Assembly (NCBI RefSeq): GCF_016907925.1
Contig: NZ_JAFBCZ010000003.1
Coordinates: 248,001 to 312,000 of the forward strand
Direction: 5' to 3'
DNA from: Herpetosiphon giganteus
GTDB taxonomy: Bacteria; Chloroflexota; Chloroflexia; Chloroflexales; Herpetosiphonaceae
DNA: 64,000 bases
Shown here: in pieces, positions 1,168 through 43,584 of the stretch
Numbering within the stretch: position 1 is the stretch's first letter
Layout: each line of letters opens with the position of its first letter
Notes under the pieces: generated by a model
Database searches by the model: none
What the model was told of the DNA's origin: nothing
What the model saw: only the letters and a program-made list of their open reading frames with translations
Translations under genes and position numbers: made by a program

Positions 1168-1764
1168 TTATGAGAGCAAGGCTTCAGCATCGATAATGGT
1201 TTGGGCGACATCTTTGAGTTTAACCCGCTTTTCACGAGCACGATGGCGCAACCGCTCATAGGCATCGTGTTCGCTAATATTCAGGCGTTGCATCAAAATA
1301 CCCTTAGCCCGTTCAATCAATTTGCGTGCTTCCAGCGATTCGTGCAAGGCATCGACTTCTTGGCGCAAGGCCCGAATTTCGGCAAAGCGCGCTAAGGCAA
1401 TATCGATTGCTGGCGTTAAGGCTTCCATCGTTACAGGTTTGACCAAATATCCCAGTGCGCCAGCTCGTTCAGCTTTGCGAATGGTGTCACGGTCGGTAAA
1501 CGCCGTCACCATTACAATTGGCATTGGCCGCTCAGCATACAGGCGCGCGGCAACCTCGGTGCCTTCCAATTCTGGCAACTTCACATCAAGAATCGCCATG
1601 TCGGGATCTAATTGGCGCGCCAACTCCAAGGCTTGGGTTCCGGTGCGGGCAACACCCACAACCTGATAGCCCAAATCGGTCAAATATTCTTCCATGGTCA
1701 AGGCCACAAGTTCGTTATCTTCGGCCAATAAAATCCGAATTGTGGCTCGCTGCTCGTCAGACAT
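1168..1764 (-). CDS. Response regulator with ANTAR RNA-binding domain
   Basis: This is a 198-residue AmiR/NasT-type regulator. Residues 8-125 form a receiver domain with acidic pocket E15/D16, phospho-acceptor D60 in 'MAILDVKLP', T87 and K109 in 'YLVKPV'. A coiled linker follows, then an ANTAR domain (about 135-195) with the typical 'LIERAKGILMQR' helix. ANTAR proteins bind paired RNA hairpins in leaders and prevent termination once phosphorylated, so the target should be a transcript rather than a promoter. No histidine kinase is adjacent. The start has a GGAGC ribosome site. A candidate extended -10 (TGCTAGGAT on the minus strand) lies just upstream near 1800. Confidence 0.93.
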   Translation of the reverse strand: MSDEQRATIRILLAEDNELVALTMEEYLTDLGYQVVGVARTGTQALELARQLDPDMAILDVKLPELEGTEVAARLYAERPMPIVMVTAFTDRDTIRKAERAGALGYLVKPVTMEALTPAIDIALARFAEIRALRQEVDALHESLEARKLIERAKGILMQRLNISEHDAYERLRHRAREKRVKLKDVAQTIIDAEALLS

Positions 1765-1799: not shown

Positions 1800-2440
1800 C
1801 ATCCTAGCATACTTTAAAAAGCATTTACACAGATTAAATACAGGCAAATAAACATCTAAATATATAGATAATGATAAAAAATTATATTTTAGGGCTACGT
1901 TGATCTCGTTGATTTGAATATTCTGTTGCGTTACTTTCCAATCGGGCTTAATCCAATGCGCAGCATTGGGGATTTCCCCAATATATTATTTAATTAGGAT
2001 CATGAAATAGACGTTAACAGTAGAGCATGTGGATTTGTGGAAAGATCGCGTTTCATGCTCTTCTAATGCGCCATGTTTGATCGGGATAGATCGTGGAAGA
2101 GTTTCCCCATGTTCCCCATGGTTTTGGGGATAGGCACATGATGTGGATTATTGTGCACGATCTGCCAACATGGTTTCCCCATGCTTGTCCACATGCTGGC
2201 TAGTTTTCCACAGCAAAGGGCTAGTTATCCCCAATTTGTGGATAATTTTGGGGATAACTGGCGAATAAACAGGGATAACACTACATCTAGGATAACTTGG
2301 CTGAGCATGGCCCTAGATATAGTAGATCCTGGTCGTGGATGTTTTGTGGAAAAGCTGCTGATAACGTGGTGGAAAACCTCTGTATAACATGATCGCTCCA
2401 TGAGCCTGTGGATAGCTGTGGAAACTTGTGGATAACATGC
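1800..2440. other. AT-rich stretch plus dense cluster of DnaA-box-like sites (candidate replication origin element)
   Basis: This gene-free stretch starts with an AT-rich segment (1800-1895) and continues with many copies of the DnaA box TTATCCACA or near variants. Perfect boxes (as TGTGGATAA) lie at 2237-2245 and 2427-2435. Near matches lie at 2028-2036, 2142-2150, 2185-2193, 2204-2212, 2225-2233, 2249-2257, 2270-2278, 2345-2353, 2407-2415 and 2417-2425. Density is highest at 2185-2280 and 2405-2435. The arrangement is what an origin or a DnaA-titrating locus looks like. No dnaA or dnaN gene is in the window, so origin function is an inference. Confidence 0.6.
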
Positions 2441-2511: not shown

Positions 2512-3048
2512 TTATTGATCAGATTCTGGATCGATTGAGTCGATGAATTTACGGAAGATCGAAAGCTCTTCTTCATCGGTTGTTGGGGCAGCCTCAGGCT
2601 CGGCCTGCGAAACCGATGTTGTTGGAATATCTTCGCTTTCGTCTTGGTCGTCCATCATATGGCCCAATTCTTCCATCACATGGTCGGCCACGAAAATAGG
2701 GGCTTCGGCGCGAACTGCCAAGGCAATTGCATCGCTAGAACGTGAATCAAGCTCGATCGCTTGGCCATTGTTATCGATGACTAAGCGGGCAAAAAAGGTG
2801 CTATCGCGAAAATCGCTAACTACAACTTCGCGAATCGTGCCGCCCAGTGCTTTGACGGTGGCCAAAAGCAGGTCGTGGGTCATTGGGCGAGGTGGCTCAT
2901 GGCCTTGGACGGCTAGTGCAATTGCATCGGCTTCAAACGGGCCGATCCAGATTGTCACATAGCGACGGCTGTTCAGCTCCCGTAGGACAACAATCCGTTG
3001 TTGTGTGAGTAGACTAAAGCGTATGCTATCAACCTGGACACGAACCAT
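2512..3048 (-). CDS. Bifunctional nuclease family protein (BFN, DUF151)
   Basis: The first 125 or so residues match the DUF151/BFN fold: 'VVLRELNSRRYVTIWIGPFE' early, then 'DAIALAVQG', and the hallmark late motif 'IELDSRSSDAIALAVRAEAP'. Members of this family have been described as having DNase and RNase activity in plants and are widespread in bacteria, where their physiological role is less clear. The last 50 residues are strongly acidic and Ser/Pro/Thr-rich ('DDQDESED', 'TTDEEELS'), unlike the compact core, and are probably disordered or a partner-binding tail. The start ATG has AAAGG 10 bases upstream. The protein has no signal peptide and should be cytoplasmic. Confidence 0.9.
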   Translation of the reverse strand: MVRVQVDSIRFSLLTQQRIVVLRELNSRRYVTIWIGPFEADAIALAVQGHEPPRPMTHDLLLATVKALGGTIREVVVSDFRDSTFFARLVIDNNGQAIELDSRSSDAIALAVRAEAPIFVADHVMEELGHMMDDQDESEDIPTTSVSQAEPEAAPTTDEEELSIFRKFIDSIDPESDQ

Positions 3049-4414: not shown

Positions 4415-4552
4415 TTTTTGGGGGTAACTTATGCAATTTGGGGATAGTATTCAGAACATGTGTTTTTATTAACAAGTGGGTTTTATAATTATTTGAAACA
4501 TTTGTGTTATTATGGCTGGATAAAAACAATTTATTTGACAAATTGCAAAAAG

Positions 4553-4582: not shown

Positions 4583-4650
4583 TTTTTGGGCTATTGTTTC
4601 TTTTTGCACAATCTTTTTGGGGGATAGCTTGCTAGTACTTTGGGGTTAAG

Positions 4651-5589
4651 CTAGATTGGGGCAACCATGAAGTCTGGTTCTGGCTCGAAGTTGGCCTTGA
4701 GGAGATTGAGTTGTTCTGCAAAAGCGCGTTCGGCTAGTGTAAGCCCAATTGGCTGAAATTGCAAATACTCAGAAGGCAAGTGCTGAGCGAGTTTGGGCAA
4801 ATCGGCGCGAATCACAACCCCAAGCACTGGATAGCCGCCTGTGGTTTGGGCATCGGCCAAAAGCACAATCGGCTGGCCATCTGGTGGCAGCTGAATTGTG
4901 CCGGGCACAACTCCAAACGAACGTACTCGATTGGCTGGGGCTGCTAAGGCTTGGCCTTCGCAACGATAGCCCATGCGATTGCTTTTGCTGCTAATGCACC
5001 ACGTTTCGGCTTGAAAGTGACGCTGAATCGAGCCATTCAAGTTGCGATTGGGCAGATAGCGAATTGGGCTTTGGCTTGAATCAATGGACATTGTGTCCAA
5101 ACCTCGGCCTGCAATCGTCAGATCTGGTTGGTTATAGCTTAATTGATCGCCGATTCTCAACGGTTGGGCTAAATGGCCCGACCATGGTGCGCCAAGCAAA
5201 CAGCTTTGCGAGCCAAGTTGCGGCGCAATGTTGAAACCACCAGCAATTGCCAGATAGCAGCGTGCGCCGCTTCGCCGTTGGCTAAATGTCAACTCGCTAT
5301 TGGGTCGCACTAACAATGCCCTGCCAAGCGCAATTGGTTGATCATCAAGCTCAGCGCCGAAATCGGCCCCAACCAAGGCAATGATTGTTAGCTCGCTGAA
5401 ATGCAGCCGTGCCCCTGCGCCCGTCATTTCGAGGCTAGCCAACTCTGCTGAATTACCAACCACGCGGCTAGCGAGACTATGCGCCAGCCAATCGAGTGCA
5501 CCGCTGGCAGGCACGCCCCAATGCCGCAGGCCAGCACGCCCCGTATCCTGCAAGCTTATCAACATGCTCGTTTGGCGAATCGTCAACAT
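4651..5589 (-). CDS. pxpC: PxpC/KipA-type subunit of 5-oxoprolinase (biotin-dependent carboxyltransferase family)
   Basis: The protein has the family signature from its first residues ('SLQDTGRAGLRHWGVPASGA'), then 'ANRVRSFGVVPGTIQLPPDG' and 'ADAQTTGGYPVLGVV' near the end. PxpC works with PxpA and PxpB to open 5-oxoproline (pyroglutamate) to glutamate with ATP; the family also covers part of urea amidolyase. At 312 residues it is full length for the subunit. The ATG at 5589 is chosen because the 29-codon in-frame extension upstream consists of intergenic repeat DNA. No pxpA or pxpB neighbours are visible, which is odd because the three genes usually sit together. Confidence 0.88.
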   Translation of the reverse strand: MLTIRQTSMLISLQDTGRAGLRHWGVPASGALDWLAHSLASRVVGNSAELASLEMTGAGARLHFSELTIIALVGADFGAELDDQPIALGRALLVRPNSELTFSQRRSGARCYLAIAGGFNIAPQLGSQSCLLGAPWSGHLAQPLRIGDQLSYNQPDLTIAGRGLDTMSIDSSQSPIRYLPNRNLNGSIQRHFQAETWCISSKSNRMGYRCEGQALAAPANRVRSFGVVPGTIQLPPDGQPIVLLADAQTTGGYPVLGVVIRADLPKLAQHLPSEYLQFQPIGLTLAERAFAEQLNLLKANFEPEPDFMVAPI

Positions 5590-5604
5590 AGGCCTAAGTA
5601 TAAG

Positions 5605-5880
5605 CGAAGGCAAAGAACATAGAACATAGAGCAAAGAACATAGAACATAGGGATGAAAGCAAAAGGCAGAAGGCAAAAGTCAAAAGGCAAAAGTCATAGC
5701 TTTAACTCAGAGGCGCAGAGCGACCGAAGGATGAAGGATGAAGGATGAGGGATGAAAGCAAAAGCCCATAGCCCATAGCCTATAGCCACATCTTCGTGTC
5801 CTTCGCGCTCTTCGTGTTCTTCGTGGTTTCATTCTTCGTGCTCTTCGTGCTCTTTGTGGATCAAAACCTGATCCCTCGCC
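5605..5880. repeat. Intergenic repeat mosaic
   Basis: No gene is seen. The stretch is a patchwork of short words: 'gaacatagagca', 'aaggcagaaggcaaaagtcaaa', 'aactcagaggcgcagag', 'gaaggatgaaggatga', 'gcccatagcctatagcc' and 9-bp tandem CTTCGTGTC-like units (about 5790-5860). The same words recur in at least nine other gaps of this window, in both orientations. Confidence 0.85.
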
Positions 5881-5986
5881 TCCCGAAAGATTGCGCGTAT
5901 AATGATGCTACACATTGTTCTGTTAAGTTGATTATCTACTATCGAATGTCGTTTTTTTGGCGATTGTACTTGTTGGAGGCAAGCCC

Positions 5987-8173
5987 ATGACTACTCGTAC
6001 CCTTCGGATTGTGCTCCTGCTGGGGTTGTTGCTGCTTTTTTTTGGTGGCTCGTATACCCAAGCGCGTGAGTTGCAACGGCCAATGCCCCGACCACAAACT
6101 GCTCTTGTCTCAACAATTTACATCAACCAAAGCTTCGATAGCCCCATTTTTCCCCCTGCCAATTGGGCAACCACGATTATCACCGCAACCGATACGCCTG
6201 ATCCTGAATGGACTCACGTAACCAGTGCTACTCGACCAACCGCTCAGCCCCATAGTGGTGTGGGCATGGCTCATTTCAATAGCTATTCAACGAGCAATGA
6301 CAATGCAGCGCGCTTATCAACGGTGCTTACGCCAACTACTAATGTGCTACGGGCAAGTTTTTGGTATTACCATAGCGCAATTTTTCCAACCTCGGCTGAT
6401 ACGCTGTTGGTGCAAACCAGCAATGATGGCCAAAACTACACCACTCGCACTAGCTATCCGCGCTATCGGGCAACTGATGGCTGGACGCAATATCAGCTTG
6501 ATTTGCCATTTGCCAATGTCGGCCAGCCGTTTTACTTGGGATTTTTGGGGATCAGCGATTTTGGGGCCAATCTTTTAATTGATGATGTGCTGATTCAAGA
6601 TACGCCGCCGATTGAAATCTTTGGCACGACCAGCAACCAAGGCTGTGCTGGCGATACTTTGCTCTATCCATTAAGCGTGCGCAACAATTATCCCAATTCG
6701 CAAACGATTAACCTTAATCTTGCACCGAGTGCTTGGCCAAGCAGTTTACCGTTTAATACGCTGACGATTCCTGCTCAAAGCAGCGGCCCAATTACGGTGA
6801 GCGTACATATTCCGGCAACCGCCCAACCGCGCACTAGCGATCAAACGACGTTGCAATTAAGCAATCAATTGGTTGAGCTTAATCAAGCGCTTGTGACCAA
6901 TTGTAGCCTTGGCCATTGGCTTGATCGCGAAGATTCGTTGCTGGCGGCCCGCTATTCGTCGGTCGTTAGCGCCGATGGTTCGCTGTTTCAAATTGGTGGG
7001 CAAGGGCCAAATAATAATTCTCCTGCCTTGCCCAATACGTTGCGCTATCAGCCGATTACTGACAGCTGGCAACAACGTGCGCCGATGCCTGTTGCAACTT
7101 TTGGCACTGATGCGGCTACGCTGAATGGTGAAATTTATCTGGTTGGTGGCTATCGTACTGGCGGCGGCTCAACCACCACAGGCTTGATTAGCGATCTACA
7201 AATTTATTCGCCAACGCTTGATATTTGGCGCAGCGGTCCAAGCCTGCCAACGCCATTGGCCTATTATCAATCGGCGGTGCTTGCTGGCAAACTATATATT
7301 ATTGGCGGCTCGAATGGAACCAATGCCTTAGCCAGCGTTTGGATATTTGACCCAGCCAGCCAAGCATGGACTGCCGGGCCAGCGATGAGCACGCCGCGGG
7401 CATTCGCTTCGGCTGGAGTGGTGGATAACAAACTCTATGTGGCAGGCGGTACGGCGACAATTAGCAACCAAACGGCCTTGGATACGATGGAATTCTATGA
7501 TCCAAATGTAAATGCTTGGCTGGCTGCGCCAAACTTGCCCCGTCGCCAAATGCAGGGTGGCGATGCCCAAATTCTCGACCGCTTTTTTATCATTACAACA
7601 GGCTATTCGATGCCGGTGGTGGCCTCAAACTCAAGCTTAATTTTCGATCAGCAGACCAACGAATGGTCGGAAGTGCTGCTCAACAGTTCGCGCTATGGAG
7701 CCGAAGCCGATAGCATCAACGACACGCTGTTTGTGGTTGGCGGTCGTCAATTTGCCAACAATAGTTTTACGATGAGCAGCCGCAACGAATCGTTCCAAAT
7801 TTGTCGTTTTGTGCTAACGACAGCAACGCCAACTCCAACCAGCACCAATACTGCCACCGCAACCAATTCGCCAACCAATACCGCGACTAATTCGCCAACC
7901 AACACCAATACGCCGACAATCAGCCCAACTCCGACCAATAGCCAAACCCCAACTGCGAGCAGCTCGGCAACAATCAGCCCAACTCCGACCAATAGCCAAA
8001 CCCCAACCATAACGACCACACCGCCGAGCAGCACGCCAACTCATTCGCCGACCGCGACGCTGAGCCAAACCCCAACAACCTCGGCCACGCCGCCGACCAA
8101 TACGCCGACCGCGACCCAACCAATTGGGCTGCGCAAGGTATTCTTGCCGCTGGTTGGGAATCAGTTGCGTTAG
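5987..8173 (+). CDS. Secreted Kelch-repeat beta-propeller protein with Thr/Pro stalk
   Basis: The ATG at 5987 has GGAGG 7 bases upstream; an in-frame TTG at 5957 has none. Residues 1-30 are a signal peptide (TTRTLR, then a Leu/Phe core). A beta-sandwich, jelly-roll-like domain follows (about 40-210), then an NPCBM/DUF11-like stretch, and from about residue 310 several Kelch units with the pattern '[10 protein letters not shown]', 'LYIIGGSNG', 'KLYVAGGTA' and 'LFVVGGRQF', each followed by 'W'. The last 120 residues are almost only Thr, Pro, Ser, Asn and Ala. They end in '[13 protein letters not shown]', a tail shared with the amylase at 20221. The propeller probably binds or oxidises carbohydrate. 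No copper-radical motif could be confirmed. Confidence 0.9.
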
Positions 8174-8510
8174 TAAAGAGTATAGAGCGAAGAACATAGA
8201 GCAAAGGGAGAAATTTAACGCAGAGGCGCAGAGACATTATGGTTACAGGCTATAGGCTATGGGCTTTTGGAACATAATTAAAACAATCTGTGGAATCTGG
8301 GGCGAAAAAATTATGCTTCGTGGTTTCTCCCCTTCGTGCTCTTCGTGTCCTTCGTGGAGCATAATTTAACGCAGCGGCGCAGAGAATCCATGGCTATAGG
8401 CTGATGGCTATCGGCTATCGGAACAATAATCTGAGTAATCTGTGTCAATCTGTGGCTAAAAACTTAATCTTCGTGCTCTTCGCGTTATTCGTGGTTTCAA
8501 ACTGCGCGCT
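8174..8510. repeat. Intergenic repeat mosaic after the Kelch gene
   Basis: No gene is seen between 8174 and 8510. The words are 'tatagagcgaagaacatagagc', 'aacgcagaggcgcagaga', 'ctataggctatgggc', 'aatctgtggaatctgtgg'-like units and tandem CTTCGTGCT nonamers (about 8330-8360 and 8468-8500). Confidence 0.8.
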
Positions 8511-8579
8511 TTGCATCCTGCGTGGCCCAATCGTCGTCTTATTGCTAGGCGCTTAAATCTTACGATACTAAAAAATAGG

Positions 8580-8609
8580 TTGACAATAAAAAGTGACGCA
8601 TGGTACAGT
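8580..8609 (+). promoter_or_regulatory. Sigma70-type promoter of the HD-domain gene
   Basis: TTGACA at 8580-8585 and TACAGT at 8604-8609 are separated by 18 bp. They lie about 60 bp upstream of the start codon at 8669. Confidence 0.55.
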
Positions 8610-8668
8610 TTGTGATATGGAGATCACGATTGACGCAATTCAATTGAATCGGCCAGGAGGAAAGAACG

Positions 8669-9181
8669 ATGGATGATTTGATTGAGGATTTACTTGCGCA
8701 TCCCAAAGTGCTGGAAACCCAAACCCATCTGCACCATGGGATTGCAAAATACGAACATTTAATGCGGGTTACCCGCTATTCATATCGCATTGCCCGTTTG
8801 CTCAAAGCCGATGTGCGGGTTTGTACTCGGGCTGCCTTGCTCCACGATATTGATTCGCGCTATGGCACGCTGGAAAATCATGGCGCTGTGGCTGCACGCT
8901 GGGCCGAAGAACAAGGCGAAGATTCGGCTGTCTGCCTAGCAATCGTTGGCCATATGTACCCGATTGGCCCTGCACCCATGACCCGCGAAGGCTGGATTTT
9001 GTCGTTGGCCGATAAGGCTGCATCATTGGCCGATTTGACCGCCTATGTGCGAGGATTGGTCAATGGCCGTTCGCAAAAAATGAAACGCGATCTGCAAGCC
9101 AGCGATCCATTTTATCGCCCACGGCGCAAACCAAAACGCCGCGAACAACTGCGCAAAATGCTCGATATTGATATTAGCTGA
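8669..9181 (+). CDS. HD-domain phosphohydrolase
   Basis: This 170-residue cytoplasmic protein carries the HD metal site in order: 'HHGIAKYEHLMRVTRYS' (first His), 'AALLHDIDS' (the HD pair), 'VGHMYP' (His) and 'LADKAASLADL' (late Asp). HD proteins hydrolyse phosphate esters of nucleotides or signalling nucleotides. The compact size and lack of fused domains leave the substrate open. GGAGG sits just before the ATG. The C-terminus is very basic ('RPRRKPKRREQLRK'), which may bind nucleic acid or only be an extended helix. It has its own promoter and no operon partner. Confidence 0.85.
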   Translation: MDDLIEDLLAHPKVLETQTHLHHGIAKYEHLMRVTRYSYRIARLLKADVRVCTRAALLHDIDSRYGTLENHGAVAARWAEEQGEDSAVCLAIVGHMYPIGPAPMTREGWILSLADKAASLADLTAYVRGLVNGRSQKMKRDLQASDPFYRPRRKPKRREQLRKMLDIDIS

Positions 9182-9333
9182 ATTTAAATATTGAACGATA
9201 GATCGAATTGTGTAACAGTTTTGTTGCACAATTTTTGTTTAATTGATGTAAATAGTTATTTCGCTTAACTAAAGCAGAAATAGTTTCTAGCATGATTAAA
9301 GATTGAAACGGCGTTGCTTAGAACTTAATATTT

Positions 9334-9362
9334 TTGACCGAATCTCCGGAGCGGCGTATTAT
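9334..9362 (+). promoter_or_regulatory. Sigma70-type promoter of the 5'-nucleotidase gene
   Basis: TTGACC at 9334-9339 and TATTAT at 9357-9362 are separated by exactly 17 bp. They lie 55 bp before the ATG at 9417. The spacer holds the palindrome CTCCGGAG. Confidence 0.65.
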
Positions 9363-9416
9363 AGCACTATATGCTTGGATCTCAATACGAGCATATCAGT
9401 GTTTTAGGAGGATTGA

Positions 9417-11321
9417 ATGATGCGTTTGCTACGTGCGTTCGCGTTGTTGCTCTTGGTGGCTGTTTTGGCTCCGCTCGGCTTACAGAGCGGTGTCGTGAAG
9501 GCCCAAAGTGAGCAACGCACGGTCACAATTTTGGAAACCAGCGATATTCACGGCAATTTGATGGCGTGGGATTACTACACCGGCAAGCCCGCCGAATGGG
9601 GTATGACCAAGGTCGCAACCCTGATCAAACAAGAACGGGCGCTTGATCCCAATCTGTTGTTGGTCGATAGTGGCGATACGATTCAAGGCTCGCCGTTGAC
9701 CTACTACTACAATACGATTGACCAAAATGCGCCGCATCCAATGGCAGCGGTGTTTAATACGCTGAAATATGATGCAGCTGCTCTGGGTAATCACGAATTC
9801 AACTATGGTTTGGATGTGCTGAATCGCTATAGCAGCCAAGCCCAATACCCAGTGATGAGCGCAAATACCCGTAAAACTGATGGCAGCGAAGCCTTCAAGC
9901 CGTATACGATCAAAGATGTCAATGGCGTGAAAGTTGGTATTTTGGCCTTAACCACGCCATCTGTGCCAACTTGGGAAAAACCAGCTAACATTGCTGGCTT
10001 GCAATTCGCTGATCCGGTTGAAATTGCCAAGCAATATGTGCCACAAATTCGCGCCGAAGGGGCCAATATTGTGGTGGTCATTCAACACATTGGTTGGGAA
10101 AAACAACCAGCCGATGCAACCAAGCCAGAAGCATGGCTTACCGACCACAACACCTGGCGCGATACTGGCTCGTTGCCTGGCGAAAATGTGGCGATTAAAC
10201 TGGCCTTAGAAGTGCCTGGGATTGATGCAATTTTAACTGGTCACTCGCACTTGAATGTTCCCAAGGCTGTTATCAATAATGTTTTATTAACCGAGCCATC
10301 ATATTGGGGCCGGAATTTGGGCAAAGTGTCAATTACGGTTGAGAAAAATGGCGATAGCTGGAATGTAGTTAATAAAGATTCAACCACGCTTTCGGTTACC
10401 AACGTTGCTGAAGATCCAGAGATCAAAGCACTTATCCAACCCTACCACGACCAAACGTTGAGCTACATCAGCCAGCCCGTTGGCACGGCCAGCGCCGAAT
10501 TTGCTGGCGGCCCTAAGGCTCGCTATCGCGATAGCGCCTTGGCCGATTTGATCAACAATGTGCAAAAGCAAGCTGCTGCTGACGCAGGCTACCCTGTCGA
10601 TCTCTCGCTGGCAGCGATTTTTACCGATGGCGGCATGATTCCGGCTGGCCAAATTACCTTGCGCGATGCCTACAGTATTTACATTTACGACAACACGTTG
10701 TATGTGATGGAAATTAATGGCGATATTTTGCGCCGCGCGCTAGAACGTAACGCCGAATATTTCCGCCAACTTGATCCCAATGCCTTGCCCGATGATCCCA
10801 AGGCTGTGGTTAACGATAATGCCCGCGATTACAATTGGGATTTGTATACCGACATCGAATATAGCTACGATTTGACCAAGCCAGCAGGCCAGCGTGTGAC
10901 CAAGCTCCAATTAAATGGCGTTGACATTGCACCTGAACAAACCCTGCGGATTGCAATCAACAACTATCGCGCTGGTGGCGGCGGCGGCTTTGCCATGTTC
11001 CGCGAAGGCAAGATTTTGTATCAATCGACCAGCGAAATTCGCGATTTGATTGCAGAATCGGTTAAAAATGCTGGCACAATTGACCCAGCGGTGGTGAATA
11101 AAGTTAACTTTACTTTAGTGCCAGATTTGTACGCTCACTACTATGGCAACGCGACCCAACCAAGCGCTACGCCAGTGACAGCAGCGCCAACCGCCACGCC
11201 AGCGCCAAATGTGCCAATTACCTTGCCTGATACCAGCAGCAGCCAACCAAGCTATGGCTGGGCTTGGGCGACGCTTGCCATGCTCTTGCTCGTGTTGGGC
11301 TTGATTGTGCGCCGCAAGTAA
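9417..11321 (+). CDS. Surface-anchored 2',3'-cyclic-nucleotide phosphodiesterase / 5'-nucleotidase
   Basis: Signal peptide (about 1-29), then a calcineurin-like phosphoesterase domain with all metal motifs: 'TSDIHGNL', 'VDSGDTIQGS', 'ALGNHEFNYG', 'VVIQHIGWE' and 'LTGHSHLNVP'. A C-terminal 5'-nucleotidase substrate domain follows (about 350-560). This architecture matches CpdB/UshA/YfkN enzymes, which release phosphate and nucleosides from extracellular nucleotides. After an Ala/Thr/Pro linker the protein ends with 'ITLPDTSSSQ', a hydrophobic helix and 'RRK'. This is shaped like a sortase (LPxTG) anchor but with Ser in place of Gly. AGGAGG at 9406-9411 precedes two adjacent ATGs (9417 and 9420). 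Length 634 aa. Confidence 0.93.
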   Translation: MMRLLRAFALLLLVAVLAPLGLQSGVVKAQSEQRTVTILETSDIHGNLMAWDYYTGKPAEWGMTKVATLIKQERALDPNLLLVDSGDTIQGSPLTYYYNTIDQNAPHPMAAVFNTLKYDAAALGNHEFNYGLDVLNRYSSQAQYPVMSANTRKTDGSEAFKPYTIKDVNGVKVGILALTTPSVPTWEKPANIAGLQFADPVEIAKQYVPQIRAEGANIVVVIQHIGWEKQPADATKPEAWLTDHNTWRDTGSLPGENVAIKLALEVPGIDAILTGHSHLNVPKAVINNVLLTEPSYWGRNLGKVSITVEKNGDSWNVVNKDSTTLSVTNVAEDPEIKALIQPYHDQTLSYISQPVGTASAEFAGGPKARYRDSALADLINNVQKQAAADAGYPVDLSLAAIFTDGGMIPAGQITLRDAYSIYIYDNTLYVMEINGDILRRALERNAEYFRQLDPNALPDDPKAVVNDNARDYNWDLYTDIEYSYDLTKPAGQRVTKLQLNGVDIAPEQTLRIAINNYRAGGGGGFAMFREGKILYQSTSEIRDLIAESVKNAGTIDPAVVNKVNFTLVPDLYAHYYGNATQPSATPVTAAPTATPAPNVPITLPDTSSSQPSYGWAWATLAMLLLVLGLIVRRK

Positions 11322-11324
11322 GGG

Positions 11325-11772
11325 CAAAAGGCAGAAGGCAAAAGTCAAAAAAGAGCAGAGGCTATAGGCTATGGGCTATCGGAATATTTAAGGTCAAAAG
11401 GCAGAAGTCAAAAGTCAAAAAAGGGGAGAGAGAGGGATGAAATTTAACCGCGAAGGACGCGAAGAGCACGAAGGAGCAATGGCTTTGGGCTTTGGTCTAT
11501 CGGAAATTTATTCGTGGAATTCGTGTCCTACGTGGATCAAAATTTAACGCAGCGGCGCAGAACGACCGAAGGATGAAGGATGAGGGATGAAAACAAAAGC
11601 CCATAGCCCATAGCCTATAGCCACATCTTCGTGCCCTTCGTGCGCTTCGTGGATCAAAACTCTGACTTCTTGCCTCCCTAAAACCCCCGCTAGCCAAAAG
11701 CCTGTCGTCCTTCGTGCTCTTTGTGCGCTTCGTGGATCGCCAACCCCTATGCTCTATGTTCTATGCTCTTCG
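11325..11772. repeat. Intergenic repeat mosaic
   Basis: No gene is seen in this 450-bp gap. It holds the same words as elsewhere: 'gcaaaaggcagaaggcaaaagtc', 'ctataggctatgggc', 'cgcgaaggacgcgaagagcacgaagg' (reverse of the CTTCGTG units), 'aacgcagcggcgcagaa', 'ggatgaaggatgaggga', 'gcccatagcctatagcc', CTTCGTGCC nonamers and 'tatgctctatgttctatgctc'. The words run up to the stop codon of the next gene. Confidence 0.85.
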
Positions 11773-25751: not shown

Positions 25752-25767
25752 TGTTTCACGTGAAACG
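25752..25767. promoter_or_regulatory. parS-like site 1
   Basis: TGTTTCACGTGAAACG contains a perfect 14-bp palindrome and matches the conserved chromosomal parS sequence (ParB binding) at 15 of 16 positions. It lies in an AT-rich gap (25600-25745) that holds no gene. Confidence 0.85.
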
Positions 25768-25887
25768 GTAGCCACGAATTGCACGAATTCCACAAAGAGC
25801 AATTTGTAGCCATAGATGAGCACTTATTATGGTGATTATCTTCCGATAGCCCATAGATGTATTAGTTCATTGCATTGGCAACTATGT

Positions 25888-26160
25888 TCCCTCACCTCCC
25901 AACCCCCTCTCCCACTGAACGCGGGCGAGGGAGAGCACTGGTTTTTACCGACGTATTGCGCAAGAACCACGGCGTTAAAGCCCCTCGCCCGCCACGTGGG
26001 AGAGGGGTTGGGGTGAGGGGATCAAGCCGTGGTTAACCGAATGAACTAGTACAAATAGCCCATAGCCATTCTCTCGCGCCTCTGCGTTAATCGTTGCTCT
26101 TTGCCTTCATCCTTCATACCTTCCCCTATGTTCTATGCTCTATGCTCTCTGCTCTCTATT
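25888..26160. repeat. Family A palindromic repeats followed by repeat-word mosaic
   Basis: Family A units run at 25890-26023 in opposing orientations ('ccctcacctcccaaccccctctccc' and, reversed, 'gggagaggggttggggtgagggg'). The words 'agcccatagcc', 'gcctctgcgttaa', 'ccttcatccttcat' and 'tatgttctatgctctatgctctc' follow to 26160. No gene is seen. Confidence 0.8.
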
Positions 26161-26165
26161 CCCAC

Positions 26166-26171
26166 TATAAT
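26166..26171 (+). promoter_or_regulatory. -10 element of the GH31 gene
   Basis: TATAAT at 26166-26171 lies 35 bp before the start codon, directly against the repeat mosaic. No good -35 is visible inside the repeats. Confidence 0.45.
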
Positions 26172-26205
26172 AGATTGCAACTACTGATCACTACCTGAGG
26201 CTTTT

Positions 26206-28056
26206 ATGACATATACCCTTGAATCAACAGGCTTATTGGTGTTTCACCGCGATGATGAAGAGGTGCTGACGATTCAGCCCTATTTGGCTCAATATGGCTC
26301 GCAGTTTGCCGCAATGGGCGTGCAAATCCAGCCCGATACCGTGCAATACACTAGCTTCGATAACCAAACCTTTGAACTGAACCTCGAAACTACACCAACT
26401 GGCTATCGCTTGGTGTTTCACGTGAAACATCAAGTTGCCCAAATTGGTCTTGCAATCGGCATTCAGCCAGCAGGCTCGTGGTATGGCATGGGCGAACGCG
26501 TAATCCAAAGTTGGCCGCTCAATTTGGCTGGCGTGCAAAGCCAACCCTTCATTACCTACGATCACGCCGATGATGGCACGCTTAATATTGTTACGCCAGT
26601 TTGGATTGGCGCGAATGGCGTGGCGTTGATGGTCGCCGAAGATACTGGCCCGCTGCACGTCACAATCGATAGCGATCCTGCTGGCCTCATTCGCCTATTG
26701 CAGTTTCCTTCGCCAACTCCTTTTGGCGCTGGCTTGGATGGCAGCGAAATTCACTATGCAGGCACACGCTTGGTGCTCGATCTGGTGATTGCTGAGAATG
26801 TGAGCCTCGCAGCCCAGCAGATTATTCAAAAACTTGGCTATCCCAAAGCTGCGCCACCCTTGGCCATGTTCAGCAAGCCAATCTGGACAACCTGGGCACG
26901 CTATAAAATGGATATCGATCAAGCTCAAACCTTGGCCTTTGCCCAAGAAATCATCGATCAACAGTATCCATACTCCGTGCTCGAAATCGATGATCGCTGG
27001 CAAACAGCTTATGGCGATTTAGAATTCGATCGGCGCAAGTTTCCCGATCCCAAGGCAATGGTCGATCAGTTGCATCAGCTTGGTTATAAAGTAACCTTGT
27101 GGATTCCACCATTTTTTGATCCCAAGAGTGCAGCATTTGCCGAAGCAGCAGCCAACGGCTATTTGGTCAAACATCCTGGCAACGATCAACCCTATTTGAC
27201 TCATTGGTGGCAAGGTTGGGGCGGTCTGTTGGATGTTTCGAATCCAGCGGCGTTGGCGTGGTGGCAAGCAGGCTTAGACCGTTTGCAAAGCTTGTACGGC
27301 ATCGATGGCTTTAAATTCGATGGTGCTGAAGGTAATTTCTTGCCCGCCGAAGCCAAAACCCATCTGCCAATGACTCCCAATCAATATAGCGATCGCTACG
27401 TTGCCTTCGTGGCTCAATCGTGGCAATGGACTGAGGTACGCACTGGTTGGCGCTCGCAACAACAGCCAATTTTCTTCCGCGAATGGGATAAATGGAGCCG
27501 CTGGGGCATGGATAATGGCTTGCATGCGGTCGTCACTCAAGCCCTTGCCATGAGCGTCATCGGCTATCCCTACGTGTTGCCCGATATGATTGGCGGCAAT
27601 GCTTATAATGGTGAGTTTCCTGAACGCGAATTGCTAATTCGTTGGACGCAAGTTACCGCGCTCTTGCCGGCCATGCAATTCTCAATTGCGCCTTGGCAAT
27701 ACGATGCCGAAACCAGCCAAATTTGCCAGCGCTATGCGCAATTGCACGCTGAGCTAGAGCCATATATTGCCGAATTATTGCAAGCAACCACAACCGATGG
27801 CACGCCGCTGGTGCGGCCTTTGTGGTGGCACTACCCCGACGATGCGAGCACCCGCTTTATTGGCGACCAATGGTTGTTTGGCGAGCAATATTTAGCAGCG
27901 CCAATTCTGCAAGCCAACCGCTACCAACGCGACATCTACTTGCCCGAAGGTGGTTGGCGCGATTATTGGACTGGCGAGAAATTCGATGGCGAAACTTGGC
28001 TCTACAATTATCCTGCGCCCTTGGAAACCATGCCTTTATTCGAACGGCTGTGGTAG
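26206..28056 (+). CDS. Intracellular GH31 glycoside hydrolase (alpha-glucosidase/alpha-galactosidase-type)
   Basis: 616 residues without a signal peptide. The barrel carries GH31 features: 'FSKPIWTTWARYKMDIDQA', 'YSVLEIDDRWQ', 'VTLWIPPFFDP', 'GIDGFKFDGAEGN' with the nucleophile D372, and the late 'LPDMIGGNAYNGEF' region. The pattern is closest to the branch containing mammalian MYORG and bacterial relatives, so activity on alpha-glucosides or alpha-galactosides is likely, but the substrate is not settled. GAGG lies before the ATG. Being cytoplasmic and next to two secreted amylases, it could finish breakdown of imported oligosaccharides. A perfect parS-like site is embedded in the coding sequence at 26414-26429. 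Confidence 0.88.
   Translation: MTYTLESTGLLVFHRDDEEVLTIQPYLAQYGSQFAAMGVQIQPDTVQYTSFDNQTFELNLETTPTGYRLVFHVKHQVAQIGLAIGIQPAGSWYGMGERVIQSWPLNLAGVQSQPFITYDHADDGTLNIVTPVWIGANGVALMVAEDTGPLHVTIDSDPAGLIRLLQFPSPTPFGAGLDGSEIHYAGTRLVLDLVIAENVSLAAQQIIQKLGYPKAAPPLAMFSKPIWTTWARYKMDIDQAQTLAFAQEIIDQQYPYSVLEIDDRWQTAYGDLEFDRRKFPDPKAMVDQLHQLGYKVTLWIPPFFDPKSAAFAEAAANGYLVKHPGNDQPYLTHWWQGWGGLLDVSNPAALAWWQAGLDRLQSLYGIDGFKFDGAEGNFLPAEAKTHLPMTPNQYSDRYVAFVAQSWQWTEVRTGWRSQQQPIFFREWDKWSRWGMDNGLHAVVTQALAMSVIGYPYVLPDMIGGNAYNGEFPERELLIRWTQVTALLPAMQFSIAPWQYDAETSQICQRYAQLHAELEPYIAELLQATTTDGTPLVRPLWWHYPDDASTRFIGDQWLFGEQYLAAPILQANRYQRDIYLPEGGWRDYWTGEKFDGETWLYNYPAPLETMPLFERLW
26414..26429. promoter_or_regulatory. parS-like site 2 (inside the GH31 gene)
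   Basis: TGTTTCACGTGAAACA is a perfect 16-bp palindrome identical to the strong form of chromosomal parS. It is read in the gene as Val-Phe-His-Val-Lys-His. Placement inside a coding sequence is common for parS in other bacteria. Confidence 0.9.
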
Positions 28057-28100
28057 AATTTTAGCGAGTAGCCGTATTTGGTGTGTAAGGAGATCATTTC

Positions 28101-28826
28101 ATGGCCAACACGACCATCACTTGGCTTGGTCACGCTAGCTTTCTATTCGTCACGCCCGAAGGCAAACGGATTATTCTTGATCCTTGGTATGAGCATAATC
28201 CAAGCTTTCCAGCTTCGGCCAAAGCAGAGCTTGAGCATGTTGATGCGATTTTGCTCACCCACGGTCATATCGACCACACTGGTAACGCGGTTGAGCTTGC
28301 CAAACAAAGCAAAGCGCCAATTGCCGGCATGATCGAATTAATTGGCTGGGTGCAAGGCCAAGGTGTCGATGCGACACAATGTATTGGCTACAACAAAGGT
28401 GGTTGCATTGAAATTGCTGGCATCAAAGCAACATTAACCACCGCTCACCACAGCAGCAGCATTACTAACGGCAGTATTCCGCTCTATTTGGGCGATCCAT
28501 GTGGCTTTATCCTCGAATTTTCCGATGGCTGCGTGGTCTATGTCACGGGCGATACTTGTATCCACAGCGATATGGCCTTAATGGGCGAAATCTATCAGCC
28601 CAACGTCACAATCTTGCCAATTGGCGATTTTTATACCATGGGGCCACGCCAAGCAGCCCATTCCCTCAAATTAATCGGCTCGCAATTCGCAATTCCAGAG
28701 CATTACGGCACGTTCCCTGCCTTGCATGGCAACCCTGAAGCCTTGCAAAACGAGTTGAATAAGCTTGAGTTGAAAACAGAAATTGTGGCCTTGCAACCAA
28801 GTCAATCGTGGACGTACCAAGCCTAA
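28101..28826 (+). CDS. Metallo-beta-lactamase-fold hydrolase, UPF0173 type
   Basis: 241 residues. The first residues 'TTITWLGHASFLFVTPEGK' and the metal motif 'LLTHGHIDHTGNAV' (HxHxDH) mark the UPF0173 family. Later metal ligands are in 'TTAHHSSS', 'YVTGDTCIHSDM' and 'PEHYGTFP'. The proteins are cytoplasmic di-metal hydrolases whose physiological substrate is not established. AAGGAG precedes the ATG. The gene starts 45 bp after the GH31 gene in the same orientation. A parS-like site begins one base after its stop, so the site also marks the end of this gene. Confidence 0.92.
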   Translation: MANTTITWLGHASFLFVTPEGKRIILDPWYEHNPSFPASAKAELEHVDAILLTHGHIDHTGNAVELAKQSKAPIAGMIELIGWVQGQGVDATQCIGYNKGGCIEIAGIKATLTTAHHSSSITNGSIPLYLGDPCGFILEFSDGCVVYVTGDTCIHSDMALMGEIYQPNVTILPIGDFYTMGPRQAAHSLKLIGSQFAIPEHYGTFPALHGNPEALQNELNKLELKTEIVALQPSQSWTYQA

Positions 28827-28827
28827 A

Positions 28828-28843
28828 TGTTTCACGGGAAACA
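28828..28843. promoter_or_regulatory. parS-like site 3
   Basis: TGTTTCACGGGAAACA differs from the palindromic parS at one central position. It lies just after the UPF0173 stop codon. Confidence 0.75.
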
Positions 28844-28991
28844 TTTAACTCACTGAATTACAGCGTGCTGCCTAAACAACAGCACGTTGTTTTTGTCTAG
28901 CGTGCGAATTTGTTGGCTCACATGTGAACATATGCACGATTATCCGTAATCGCTTAACCGCGAATTAACCTTAGCGTCTAAATTGGCCAAG

Positions 28992-29058
28992 TTATACACA
29001 TTTCCCACAGCTTTTCCACATTAGCAATTAACCGAAGTTATCCACATGCTGTGGATAA
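28992..29058. other. DnaA-box cluster between two parS-like sites
   Basis: TTATCCACA at 29038-29046 and its inverse TGTGGATAA at 29050-29058 are perfect boxes. Together they make a 10-bp-arm palindrome (29037-29059). Near matches precede them at 28992-29000 (TTATACACA), 29001-29009 (TTTCCCACA) and 29012-29020 (TTTTCCACA). The 430-bp gap 28827-29259 holds no gene and is bracketed by parS-like sites. Confidence 0.7.
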
Positions 29059-29096
29059 CTTCTTGATAACTAAGTTGCTTTAAGCCAAAGCGTGAT

Positions 29097-29112
29097 TGTT
29101 TCACGGGAAACA
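29097..29112. promoter_or_regulatory. parS-like site 4
   Basis: TGTTTCACGGGAAACA is identical to site 3 and stands 254 bp after its end. It lies 148 bp upstream of the PHP-domain gene. Confidence 0.75.
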
Positions 29113-29259
29113 ATAGAACATATTTGCGACCCAGAGGTCAAATTTAAGTAAATTGCTGCTCTGAGCAGATTGAGGTATCATGACGAACAAAATCGACACG
29201 AGAAGTCGAGAGTTTTTGGCAAAAGAAAAAACATTGATCTTGATGGAGTAAAACGGAAA

Positions 29260-31593
29260 ATGACGTTTAGCGATGAGCAGTTATCTGCGCCTTCCGAGCG
29301 ATGGATGCGTTTAGATTTACATATCCATACGCCCGCATCTGAAGATTATGCCGAACCTGAGGTAAGTTATCTCGATATTTTACGGGCCGCCGCCGCCCAC
29401 CAACTTGATATTATTGCCTTTACCGACCACAACACGATTCGCGGCTATGAGCAATTTCGCGATGAGTTAGCCTTACTCGAACGCTTTGTGCAAGCCGACC
29501 GCTGTACGCCCGAGGAGCGCGAACGCTACGGCGAATATCAACAATTGCTGGCTCAATTGACTGTGTTGCCAGGCTTTGAATTTACCAGCCACTATGGCTC
29601 GCATATTCTGGCCCTGTTTGCCCCAACCACGCCGCTCAGTGTGCTCGAAGCTGTCTTGTTGCAATTGGGCATTCCAGCTCAAGAATTAAAGGCTGGCTCG
29701 TGCTCAATCTCCAACACCAAACACGTGACCGAAGCCTATGAGATTATCAATCGGGCTGGGGGCATCGTGATTGCAGCCCACGTTAATGCCCATTCTGGCG
29801 TGGTCAGCGAATCAATTCGCTTTGGCAATAGCGGTCAATCTCGCGTTGCTGCAACCCAAAGCCCCTATTTACACGCTCTCGAATTTGTCCATTTCTACGC
29901 TTCACACGAAAGCTACCTCAGCCCAACCTTTTATAATGGCCAACATACCTACTACGAACGGCCAATGTTCTGTATTCAAGGCTCCGATGCTCATCGCATC
30001 AGTCGCGCCGCTGCCGACGACCAAGAAAGCAAAAAACTCTATGGCGTTGGCGACCGCTATTTCGAGGCGCTCTTGCCCGAAGCCTCATTCGATGCCTTGA
30101 AAACCTTGTTTACTAGCAAGCAAATCGATAAGGTGCGCGTGCCACGCCGCGACCAAAAGCAATGGGAGATTGATAACGTGCGACTGAATGGCGATTCGCG
30201 CCACTTAATTGCCCGTCCGGCAACCGAGGAGTATCTGGCGCAAGTTTGGCACGATGTGGCAGCGCTTGCCAACGCTGATGGCGGGGTGATCTTAATTGGC
30301 ACCGATGGCGAGCAAACTGTCTCAGCAAGCAGCATCAGCGAGCAAATTAAGCAGCTTGTGGCCCAACACCTCGACCCGCAACCAAACCTCAGCCTCGAAT
30401 TAATGCAATATCAAGAACGCGATGTTGTGCGGGTTGAAGTTAAGCCCGATGAATTGCCACCCTATGTTGCAAGCAATGGCGCAGTGTATGTGCGTCGCGA
30501 CGATCAAACGCAGGTCGCCAACCGCGAAGAATTATTGCAATTGTCCCGCCGCGCCTTGGTTCGCAGCATGATGTCGCCACTTGATAATGGTGAAGATCTG
30601 GAATTGCCACGTTCAGGGGTCGAAATTGTGAGCGAGCAAAAACGCAACTCAGTTTGGACCTACGAAGTACGTGATTTGCGCACCACCACCGGCGTTGAAC
30701 GCGATCGCGCTCAAGGGTTGTGGGCTTATGCCATCTCACGCCACGAAGAATTGCGCGATGCCAAAATCGATCTCAATGAAGATGTGCGTTGGTATGGACG
30801 GCTCGGCGTTTGGCGCACCTTCCAGCAAGGCAATCGCACCAAATACGATCTGATTCATCGCGATGCCTCAGGCGTAATCGACCATATTTTCTATGGCGTT
30901 TCCGAGTGGGGGCTTGGCGAAGGCTGGCGCTCGCTGCTCGGCATCAACGATAGTTTTGCAGTTGATGCCAACGATAACGACGATCATGCACCAATCAGCG
31001 CGCCACGCAGCTTTAGCCCACCAATCGACGATGCAGAAGCTGACAACGAAGATAATTGGCTGCCGTGGGGCGACCGTAAATATCGTTGGAAGGGCCGTGG
31101 CGGCTTATGGCGCATCTATGGCAACGACGAAAAAATGCGCTTTGACCTTGCCATGAAAAACAAAGAAGATGAAGATTTCCAAACCTTCAACGATGTAACC
31201 CGCGCCAAATTGACCGAAGCATGGCTCAATTTGATTCGGGTCAAGCCGCCAACCACAGGCATCGAAGTTGTCGCCATGGAAGAAAGCGATTTTGGCCGCT
31301 CCTTCCGCTTCCGCAATTTGCGCAGCGGCGAGGTTAGCGACCCATGGCGCGATTTGGATCTTGAGCAAGGTACGGTGCGCGAATATGCTGCCCGCATGTT
31401 CCTCGAAGATCTGCCAATCGACGAGGCCTCGGTGCGCTGGTGGGGCAATATTGGCTATATGCGGCCAATGCGCTCACAAGTCGATCTCGTCTATCGCGAT
31501 GAAGATGGCGTTGACCATATTTACTATGCTGCGCGCCGCGAAGAGCTGGAAAACGAATGGCGCGAATTGCTGGAGCTGTGGGACGATGAGTAA
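29260..31593 (+). CDS. PHP-domain phosphoesterase fused to an AlbA/Schlafen-like domain and C-terminal repeats
   Basis: 777 residues from the ATG at 29260; an in-frame TTG at 29170 would add residues without conservation-like features. Residues 15-300 are a PHP domain: 'LDLHIHTP' (H21, H23), 'AFTDHNT' (D56, H57), 'LPGFEFTSHYG', 'VIAAHVNAHSG' and 'IQGSDAHR', giving a complete metal site. About 310-430 resembles an AlbA_2/Schlafen-type domain ('AALANADGGVILIGTDG', 'PPYVASNGAVYVRRDDQ'). The last 320 residues hold related units with 'WYGRLGVWR', 'WKGRGGLWR' and 'WWGNIGYMR', each followed by '(F/Y/V)DL' and a helix ending in 'WR(S/E)LL'. No family name is known to me for that part. The stop overlaps the ubiX start by 8 bp, so they are co-translated. 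Confidence 0.8.
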   Translation: MTFSDEQLSAPSERWMRLDLHIHTPASEDYAEPEVSYLDILRAAAAHQLDIIAFTDHNTIRGYEQFRDELALLERFVQADRCTPEERERYGEYQQLLAQLTVLPGFEFTSHYGSHILALFAPTTPLSVLEAVLLQLGIPAQELKAGSCSISNTKHVTEAYEIINRAGGIVIAAHVNAHSGVVSESIRFGNSGQSRVAATQSPYLHALEFVHFYASHESYLSPTFYNGQHTYYERPMFCIQGSDAHRISRAAADDQESKKLYGVGDRYFEALLPEASFDALKTLFTSKQIDKVRVPRRDQKQWEIDNVRLNGDSRHLIARPATEEYLAQVWHDVAALANADGGVILIGTDGEQTVSASSISEQIKQLVAQHLDPQPNLSLELMQYQERDVVRVEVKPDELPPYVASNGAVYVRRDDQTQVANREELLQLSRRALVRSMMSPLDNGEDLELPRSGVEIVSEQKRNSVWTYEVRDLRTTTGVERDRAQGLWAYAISRHEELRDAKIDLNEDVRWYGRLGVWRTFQQGNRTKYDLIHRDASGVIDHIFYGVSEWGLGEGWRSLLGINDSFAVDANDNDDHAPISAPRSFSPPIDDAEADNEDNWLPWGDRKYRWKGRGGLWRIYGNDEKMRFDLAMKNKEDEDFQTFNDVTRAKLTEAWLNLIRVKPPTTGIEVVAMEESDFGRSFRFRNLRSGEVSDPWRDLDLEQGTVREYAARMFLEDLPIDEASVRWWGNIGYMRPMRSQVDLVYRDEDGVDHIYYAARREELENEWRELLELWDDE

Positions 31594-43225: not shown

Positions 43226-43584
43226 GGGGATGCTTGGTTTCGACAGGGAGGGCCGATCGTAAGTGGCAAGCCGAGACGCTGAGCCTCGTTAAATCGGCAA
43301 CGCCATTAACTGGCAAAAACACTTTCCGCGCTCCTGTAGCGCTTGCTGCCTAATTAAGGCAACACGCCTCTACTAGCCTCAGCCCGATGGGCTTGTAGCG
43401 GCGACATTTAGTCGGGTCGCTCCCTTAGTTATGTCTGTGGGCTAGGGGCTAAGATTAACAGGCTGGTCGTGGCCCGCTTTGTCTATCGGGTGGTGCTACG
43501 ATAAGATTTAATCAATAGACTACGCTTGTAGATGCTTGCGGTTTAACTTTTTGGACGCGGGTTCGATTCCCGCCATCTCCACCA
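43226..43584 (+). ncRNA. ssrA: Transfer-messenger RNA (tmRNA)
   Basis: The gene begins GGGGATGCTTGGTTTCGACA and ends with a T-arm 'GGTTCGATTCC' and 'CATCTCCACCA'. The first seven bases pair with CATCTCC to form the tRNA-like acceptor, and CCA is encoded. The tag frame runs from GGC at 43312 to TAA at 43351 and reads GKNTFRAPVALAA, with the protease-recognised end ALAA. The RNA rescues stalled ribosomes with SmpB and marks the unfinished protein for ClpXP. It is a standard one-piece form of 359 nt. Confidence 0.97.

What the first reader, a model, noticed from the sequence alone, without database searches (positions are those of the whole stretch)
25752..29112. Four parS-like sites around a DnaA-box cluster: candidate origin-proximal segregation region
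Seen: TGTTTCACGTGAAAC(G/A) at 25752 and 26414 and TGTTTCACGGGAAACA at 28828 and 29097, all within 3.4 kb, with two perfect and three near DnaA boxes between the last two. Known: chromosomal parS sites bind ParB and cluster near the replication origin in most bacteria that have ParAB. Inference: this is the origin-side partition locus of the chromosome, and ParB loading could start here. It is unusual that no parA, parB, dnaA, dnaN or gidA gene is in the surrounding 64 kb. The large minus-strand genes on the left and plus-strand genes on the right agree with replication moving outward, but that is weak support.
Basis: partly seen in the sequence, partly recalled or inferred. Interest (0 to 1): 0.85.

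Follow-up and report, generated by a model that had tools for sequence, protein, structure and literature searches.

The report
Replication origin and its parS centromere
This stretch of a Herpetosiphon chromosome very probably holds the place where DNA copying starts together with the sites used to pull the two copies apart, and it lies far from the dnaA gene where genome maps of this group put the origin.

Summary
The four parS sites are the only matches (up to 2 mismatches) in the 6.16-Mb Herpetosiphon genome. They recur in place in the five other Herpetosiphon genomes searched, with an almost invariant DnaA-box core between the last two. Across the order this spot carries a phased three-box array: 52 of 54 array-bearing genomes have it 40-593 bp past BFN. 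In 14 relatives parS lies 1.6-6.4 kb from BFN, 11 of them with parA and parB beside it. In H. aurantiacus the GC-skew low point is 26-46 kb from the cluster, but the basin is broad and TA skew does not point here. dnaA lies 0.78 Mb away, parAB 0.57 Mb. Best reading: oriC is at about 1.98-2.44 kb; the parS island at 25.7-29.1 kb is its centromere, stranded when parAB moved. The DnaA-box core inside the island is a second, family-level DnaA site of unknown role. No binding or replication data exist. Ordinary machinery, but the order's origin appears misplaced on published maps.

The parts
25752..25767 (.). parS site 1 (TGTTTCACGTGAAACG), intergenic
   Evidence: a site at this place also in five other Herpetosiphon genomes
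26414..26429 (.). parS site 2, perfect palindrome, inside the GH31 gene
   Evidence: identical in the six Herpetosiphon genomes searched, G000 included; 6 of 6 codons identical in 4 species against 269 of 528 gene-wide
28828..28843 (.). parS site 3, just after the MBL-fold hydrolase gene
29097..29112 (.). parS site 4
28991..29074 (.). DnaA-box core C between parS 3 and 4: boxes 28992+, 29012+, 29038+ (perfect), 29050- (perfect)
   Evidence: 81 of 84 columns invariant in four Herpetosiphon species; boxes with parS also next to the MBL gene in G051 and G052
2142..2435 (.). DnaA-box cluster B, proposed oriC core: 9 boxes with up to 1 mismatch (2142-, 2185+, 2204+, 2225+, 2237-, 2249-, 2345-, 2407-, 2427-)
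   Evidence: its homologue is the densest cluster in 2.39 Mb sampled of H. aurantiacus; kept in six Herpetosiphon genomes
1981..2010 (.). AT-rich stretch (83% A+T), candidate unwinding element beside cluster B
   Evidence: composition and conservation only
2314..2325 (+). TAGATATAGTAG, a TAG-rich stretch inside cluster B that resembles a DnaA-trio (lead only)
   Evidence: sequence; the same in six Herpetosiphon genomes
2512..3048 (-). Bifunctional-nuclease-domain gene (BFN), synteny marker of the proposed origin across the order
   Evidence: PF02577, E 3.7e-40; matches in 138 of 158 class genomes
1168..1764 (-). Response regulator with ANTAR domain on the other side of cluster B
26206..28056 (+). 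GH31 glycoside hydrolase gene that contains parS site 2
28101..28826 (+). MBL-fold metal-dependent hydrolase gene next to the parS/DnaA core
   Evidence: class-wide search
29257..31593 (+). Gene with AlbA_2 domain and a PHP-like N-terminus (PHP match below cut-off) on the other side of the core; start codon uncertain

Best explanation
[quoted passage not shown] oriC is the intergenic stretch between the ANTAR regulator and BFN genes: nine DnaA boxes at 2142-2435 with an AT-rich flank at about 1981-2010. DnaA binds there, melts the flank and starts bidirectional replication (inferred). The four parS sites at 25.7-29.1 kb are the centromere of the same origin region: ParB, made from a parAB operon about 0.6 Mb away, loads on them, spreads, and with ParA (and perhaps SMC) separates the newly copied origins (inferred from the motif and the ParB domains). 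The DnaA-box core between parS 3 and 4 is a second conserved DnaA-binding site, probably regulatory or titrating, that ties the initiator to the ParB-loading site (inference, weak). Shown here: motif rarity and clustering, conservation, synteny and the array. Not shown: any binding, melting or initiation.
For: parS: only four matches in 6.16 Mb, all within 3.4 kb. Same island in H. aurantiacus CP000875 (5,533,012-5,536,454), H. geysericola and H. llansteffanensis, with 1, 0 and 1 further 2-mismatch matches elsewhere. Cluster B: in 2,392,587 sampled bases of CP000875 the only runs of at least 4 boxes with gaps under 100 bp are the homologues of B (8 boxes) and C (4); by boxes per 300 bp B scores 8, and the dnaA promoter and C 4 each. 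Class-wide: a three-box array (20/21 bp phasing, up to 2 mismatches) occurs in 54 of 82 genomes of the order, once in each except G041 (two), reversed control 0; in 52 of the 54 it is 40-593 bp beyond the BFN stop. parS lies on the same contig as BFN in 22 of the 38 genomes whose parS was listed, 1.6-6.4 kb from it in 14, and in 11 of these 14 parA and parB were found in the fetched parS locus. ParA and ParB adjoin parS in 14 of 30 parS loci read. In G067, G073 and G088 the array is 1.4-2.8 kb from parB, in G088 although its BFN is on another contig. dnaA is elsewhere: about 1.9-2.1 Mb from the array in three single-contig genomes and 0.13 Mb in a fourth. GC-skew fit: best origin 5.60 Mb, cluster B at 5.566 Mb fits as well, dnaA worse by 5.1 log-likelihood units.
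Against: The skew is weak: the bootstrap 5-95% range for the GC origin is 4.3 to 7.1 Mb (7.1 meaning 0.75 Mb past zero), the place of parB fits only 0.3 units worse, and TA skew prefers 6.3 Mb and ranks dnaA above B. The strict array is absent at up to 2 mismatches from G000, the five other Herpetosiphon genomes and G051; B has a looser 19/21 spacing. dnaA promoters also carry boxes: 21 of 22 dnaA loci hold at least three with up to 1 mismatch, and the four at the CP000875 dnaA promoter miss the criterion only through one 110-bp gap. Only 38% of CP000875 was read for clusters, though that includes about 94% of 4.88-6.35 Mb. parAB is not beside parS in Herpetosiphon. 16 of 38 genomes give no parS-BFN linkage (13 on different contigs, 3 without a BFN match). 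No functional data.
Confidence: 0.83

Rival explanations
1. The origin is the parS-flanked DnaA-box core C itself (28.99-29.06 kb), and cluster B is a DnaA titration or timing site.
For: 81 of 84 columns invariant in four species; parS sites flank it at 148 and 38 bp; boxes with parS by the same gene in two other genera, G051 and G052; one of only two box runs in the sampled CP000875.
Against: 4 boxes against 9; A+T only 0.55-0.63 around it; no parS and no box cluster next to the MBL gene in the 21 loci read outside the family (L216-L236), whereas B's position is kept across the order; GC-skew fit slightly worse than for B.
Confidence: 0.1
2. The origin is at dnaA, as the genome papers draw it, and this locus is a segregation and DnaA-regulatory site only.
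For: dnaA loci carry at least three DnaA boxes in 21 of 22 genomes; the H. aurantiacus map is oriented to dnaA (PMC3368417, passages) and the C. aurantiacus paper puts oriC at twelve o'clock with dnaA as Caur_0001 (PMC3150298, passages); TA skew ranks dnaA above B.
Against: GC skew disfavours dnaA; parS, parAB and the array cluster elsewhere in the order. The passages read give no experimental origin mapping.
Confidence: 0.06
3. Chance or non-chromosomal signal: the parS-like sites belong to an integrated plasmid or phage partition locus.
For: Plasmid parS can share this consensus (recalled).
Against: Conserved in place in six Herpetosiphon genomes and beside the same gene in two sister genera; window 28000-30000 has no blastn match in the plasmid collection (the rest of the island was not searched there); shuffles exclude chance.
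Confidence: 0.01

Closest known systems
Chromosomal ParABS origin domains (Bacillus subtilis Spo0J/parS, Caulobacter, Pseudomonas aeruginosa)
   Same: Same 16-bp palindrome (B. subtilis-type consensus, recalled), several sites in a few kb, ParB with the usual domains, within tens of kb of the proposed origin. P. aeruginosa needs parS within a zone of about 650 kb around oriC (PMC5098823, abstract and passages).
   Different: No parA or parB in the surrounding 64 kb. A conserved DnaA-box core sits between two parS sites.
Bacterial oriC with DnaA-box cluster and AT-rich unwinding element (e.g. Thermotoga maritima oriC, PMC10316083, abstract and passages)
   Same: Boxes in both orientations, AT-rich flank, TAG-rich stretch, the densest box cluster found.
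   Different: Not beside dnaA; marked by a BFN gene; three phased boxes at 20 and 21 bp in most relatives of the order.
oriC regions away from dnaA, acknowledged for some species by Ori-Finder 2022 (PMC10225481, passages)
   Same: DnaA boxes, parS and GC skew point to an origin that is not next to dnaA.
   Different: Here the arrangement appears order-wide; the two published maps of this group that I saw passages of place the origin at dnaA or start there.

Membership tests
Chromosomal parS centromere | Sequence match to the parS palindrome above chance | tested here: met
Chromosomal parS centromere | Cognate chromosomal ParB with ParB_N and ParB HTH domains in the genome | tested here: met
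   own ParB on C30 with a ParA gene in the same 3.3-kb locus; that it is cognate is inferred
Chromosomal parS centromere | Clustered near the replication origin | tested here: inconclusive
   clustered within 3.4 kb and 23 kb from cluster B; the origin itself is inferred and GC skew locates it only loosely
Chromosomal parS centromere | ParB binding in vivo | not testable with these tools
   needs ChIP-seq or gel shift
Chromosomal ParABS locus | parAB adjacent to parS (usual, not obligatory) | tested here: not met
   CP000875 parB at 6,134,251, about 598 kb from parS; on another contig in the window's genome and the four other Herpetosiphon drafts; met in 14 of 30 parS loci read
Bacterial oriC | Dense cluster of DnaA boxes, one per chromosome | tested here: met
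   (38% of CP000875 read); array found once in 53 of the 54 order genomes that have it
Bacterial oriC | AT-rich unwinding element beside the boxes | tested here: inconclusive
   1981-2010 is 83% A+T and conserved; melting not testable
Bacterial oriC | Cumulative GC-skew minimum at the locus | tested here: inconclusive
   lowest sampled point 26-46 kb away in a flat basin; TA skew disagrees
Bacterial oriC | Initiation of replication | not testable with these tools
   needs marker frequency or an origin-plasmid test

The most novel reading that the evidence does not exclude
In Herpetosiphonaceae the centromere itself has become a DnaA-responsive switch. Core C, with its inverted perfect DnaA boxes held between two parS sites and kept almost unchanged, would let DnaA occupancy and ParB loading compete or cooperate on the same stretch of about 280 bp. 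This would couple initiation to segregation in cis, after parAB moved away and ParA could no longer be made beside the origin.
Probability: 0.2. Interest if true: 0.75.

Novelty: new member of a known kind. Interest (0 to 1): 0.5.

Why it matters
It gives a concrete, testable origin for Herpetosiphon and, through the BFN-linked array, for its order as a whole, where the published maps I saw start at dnaA. Origin position underlies strand-bias studies, growth-rate estimates from read depth, and the design of replicating plasmids for bacteria with few genetic tools. The lineage also shows parS staying with the proposed origin while parAB leaves, a natural test of what keeps centromeres near origins.

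Tried and rejected
Gene orientation as support: rejected, strand bias not significant in sampled CP000875. The TA column was wrong because of a reused variable and was redone. One search aligned cluster B in the wrong orientation; redone. One search translated the BFN region off frame; the ORF came. One search picked a glycosyltransferase as 'ParB'; corrected. In one search row L243 was cut wrongly and is not used. In one search the files were mis-opened and every row showed the window; redone. One search left out G060 and several second sites when counting parS against BFN; recounted (22 of 38, not 22 of 37), and the distances given are. Plasmid origin: no match for window 28000-30000. The inversion between the window and CP000875 (window 561-11350 runs the other way) includes cluster B, but its far breakpoint could not be read, so it is not used as evidence.

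Limits of the counts: 16 of 38 genomes with a listed parS have BFN on another contig (13) or no match (3) and say nothing about linkage; the parS listing was cut off after G060, although 105 of 158 genomes have a match (53 have none). The reversed parS control hits 5 of 158 genomes. Only the best 30 matches per search gave loci. G045 has no parS or boxes within 1.5 kb of its MBL gene, although parS and parB are about 3-4 kb away. No shuffle control was made for DnaA-box clusters; the background is the sampled CP000875.

Not in print, as far as these searches go: Herpetosiphon with replication origin, Chloroflexus with oriC, dnaA and skew, parS with Chloroflexi, ParB and distribution, Chloroflexi with DnaA box and replication origin, Chloroflexus with parS and ParB, Chloroflexus with DoriC, Roseiflexus with origin of replication, chloroflex with oriC and parS. 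Judged by titles and abstract starts, none is about this locus. Of the papers in these eight listings I read passages of PMC3368417, PMC3150298 and PMC5109545 only; the rest were seen as listings. Only open-licence papers are held, and DoriC entries could not be consulted.
Full report
What is there. The window is C3:248001-312000 of a 6,159,747-base, 85-contig genome. The named genomes that match the MBL-fold protein beside the sites best are Herpetosiphon llansteffanensis, H. geysericola and H. aurantiacus (96, 90 and 88% identity). The reversed control pattern also gives five hits at two mismatches, so the 2-mismatch count alone means little. The four real sites, however, are all within one mismatch and within 3.4 kb, and the control has no hit at one mismatch in this genome.

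Conservation of the island. H. aurantiacus CP000875 has the four sites at 5,533,012-5,536,454 plus one 2-mismatch match at 2,593,631; H. geysericola has exactly four; H. llansteffanensis has four plus one elsewhere. Two more Herpetosiphon genomes, G048 and G050, show three sites each at up to one mismatch, and a fourth at two mismatches lies beside the same gene. Between sites 3 and 4, 81 of 84 columns (window 28991-29074) are invariant in four species, including two perfect and two one-mismatch DnaA boxes. The parS inside the GH31 gene keeps 6 of 6 codons, against 269 of 528 conserved-residue codons gene-wide; 19 of 489 six-codon windows are as conserved, so this is modest evidence. In the wider family, G051 and G052 have parS sites and DnaA boxes beside the same MBL gene (G052 six sites at up to two mismatches, G051 two). 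G045 does not within 1.5 kb, but its parS and parB lie about 3-4 kb away. In the 21 loci read outside the family the MBL gene has no parS nearby, even at three mismatches, and at most two scattered boxes (L216-L236).

The missed cluster. At 2142-2435 the window has nine DnaA boxes with up to one mismatch, between an ANTAR response regulator and a bifunctional-nuclease-domain gene, BFN. In 2,392,587 bases read from CP000875 (60 pieces of 20 kb at even steps plus about 94% of 4.88-6.35 Mb and 0-0.1 Mb), only two places have at least four boxes with gaps under 100 bp: the homologues of this cluster (8 boxes, 5,566,375-5,566,625) and of the parS-flanked core (4 boxes). The dnaA promoter has four boxes too but with one 110-bp gap. 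By boxes per 300 bp the cluster scores 8, the dnaA promoter 4 and the core 4. An AT-rich stretch (83% at 1981-2010) and a TAG-rich stretch (2314-2325) are kept in six Herpetosiphon genomes. A resemblance to DnaA-trios is a lead only.

An order-wide marker. BFN has matches in 138 of 158 class genomes. Of 30 BFN loci read, 29 hold at least three DnaA boxes (G042 has two), often three in line at 20 and 21 bp. That array, searched class-wide at up to two mismatches, hits 80 of 158 genomes; the reversed control hits none. Within the order (82 genomes, including the window's own) 54 have it and 28 do not. In 52 of the 54 it lies 40-593 bp beyond the BFN stop; the exceptions are G057 (no BFN found) and G060 (array on another contig). 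The 28 without it include G000, the five other Herpetosiphon genomes and G051; in Herpetosiphon the spacing is looser. parS and BFN share a contig in 22 of the 38 genomes whose parS was listed: 14 of them 1.6-6.4 kb apart, the farthest 55 kb; in 11 of the 14 parA and parB were found in the parS locus read. The other 16 are uninformative because the genes are on different contigs (13) or BFN was not found (3). Overall parA and parB adjoin parS in 14 of 30 parS loci read. In G067, G073 and G088 the array lies 1.4-2.8 kb from parB; G088's BFN is on another contig. In G054 they are 190 kb apart and in G059 12 kb. In four single-contig genomes dnaA is near base 600-1300 while the array is at 2.63, 1.97, 1.89 and 0.136 Mb. 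So the array tends to travel with parABS rather than with dnaA.

Skew. In CP000875 the GC-skew maximum is at about 2.45-2.9 Mb, and the two-arm split exceeds all 300 permutations. The minimum lies in a flat basin; its lowest sampled point is the piece 5.592-5.612 Mb, 26-46 kb from cluster B. A two-breakpoint fit with gene-strand bias as a covariate puts the GC origin at 5.60 Mb. Cluster B fits as well (+0.44 log-likelihood), the parS core is 2.0 worse, 4.98 Mb 1.9 worse and dnaA 5.1 worse, but parB's place (6.13 Mb) is only 0.3 worse and the bootstrap interval is wide (4.3 to 7.1 Mb). TA skew prefers 6.3 Mb, with B 5.6 worse and dnaA 2.3 worse. Skew therefore agrees with the proposal for GC, not for TA, and does not decide. 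Gene-strand bias is not significant.

parAB. The ParB (330-codon open frame; ParB_N and ParB HTH domains; a ParA gene in the same 3.3-kb locus) is on another contig in the window's genome, at 6,134,251 in CP000875, 568 kb (9% of the chromosome) from cluster B, and on other contigs than parS in the four remaining Herpetosiphon drafts. No parS at up to two mismatches lies within 1.5 kb of these six parB domains. [quoted passage not shown]

Interpretation. The economical reading is that cluster B is oriC and the parS island its centromere; that the ancestral arrangement was array, BFN, parS, parA and parB within a few kb, as in many of the order today; and that in Herpetosiphon parAB left while parS stayed about 23-30 kb from BFN and cluster B. 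The second DnaA-box core inside the island is as conserved as a functional element should be, but its role is open: titration, timing, regulation of the flanking genes, or a direct link between DnaA and ParB. The two genome papers seen place or start their maps at dnaA (PMC3368417 and PMC3150298, passages); the passages read hold no experimental origin mapping.

Verdict. The machinery is of a known kind; what is new is the place, the order-wide BFN marker and the parS-flanked DnaA core.

Noticed in passing
window 4337-4640: A third intergenic stretch with repeated CCCACAT words, one perfect DnaA box and two one-mismatch boxes, 2 kb from cluster B beside a gene that reads like dihydroorotate dehydrogenase (by eye).
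   Followed up: partly
window 561-11350 against CP000875 5564750-5575454: This segment, which includes cluster B, is inverted in H. aurantiacus relative to the window, with a breakpoint near 11.4-11.8 kb; by the strands of the MBL and BFN genes G048 and G050 keep the window's arrangement.
   Followed up: partly
window 29170-31593: Gene with a PHP-like N-terminus and an AlbA_2 domain; sub-cutoff similarity to TrlF-family and Ppl anti-phage proteins. In G051 a similar PHP-like reading frame also adjoins the core (by eye).
   Followed up: no
L215 (G052) 2240-3305: Six parS-like palindromes in about 1.1 kb, four of them GGTTTCACGTGAAACC, two of these inside a short repeated unit: apparent local multiplication of parS.
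   Followed up: no
window 43226-43584: A tmRNA gene (tag GKNTFRAPVALAA).
   Followed up: no
window 25890-26020: Intergenic inverted-repeat-like text (CCCTCACCTCCCAACCCCCTCTCCC ... GGGAGAGGGGTTGGGGTGAGGGG) between parS 1 and the GH31 gene, seen by eye.
   Followed up: no
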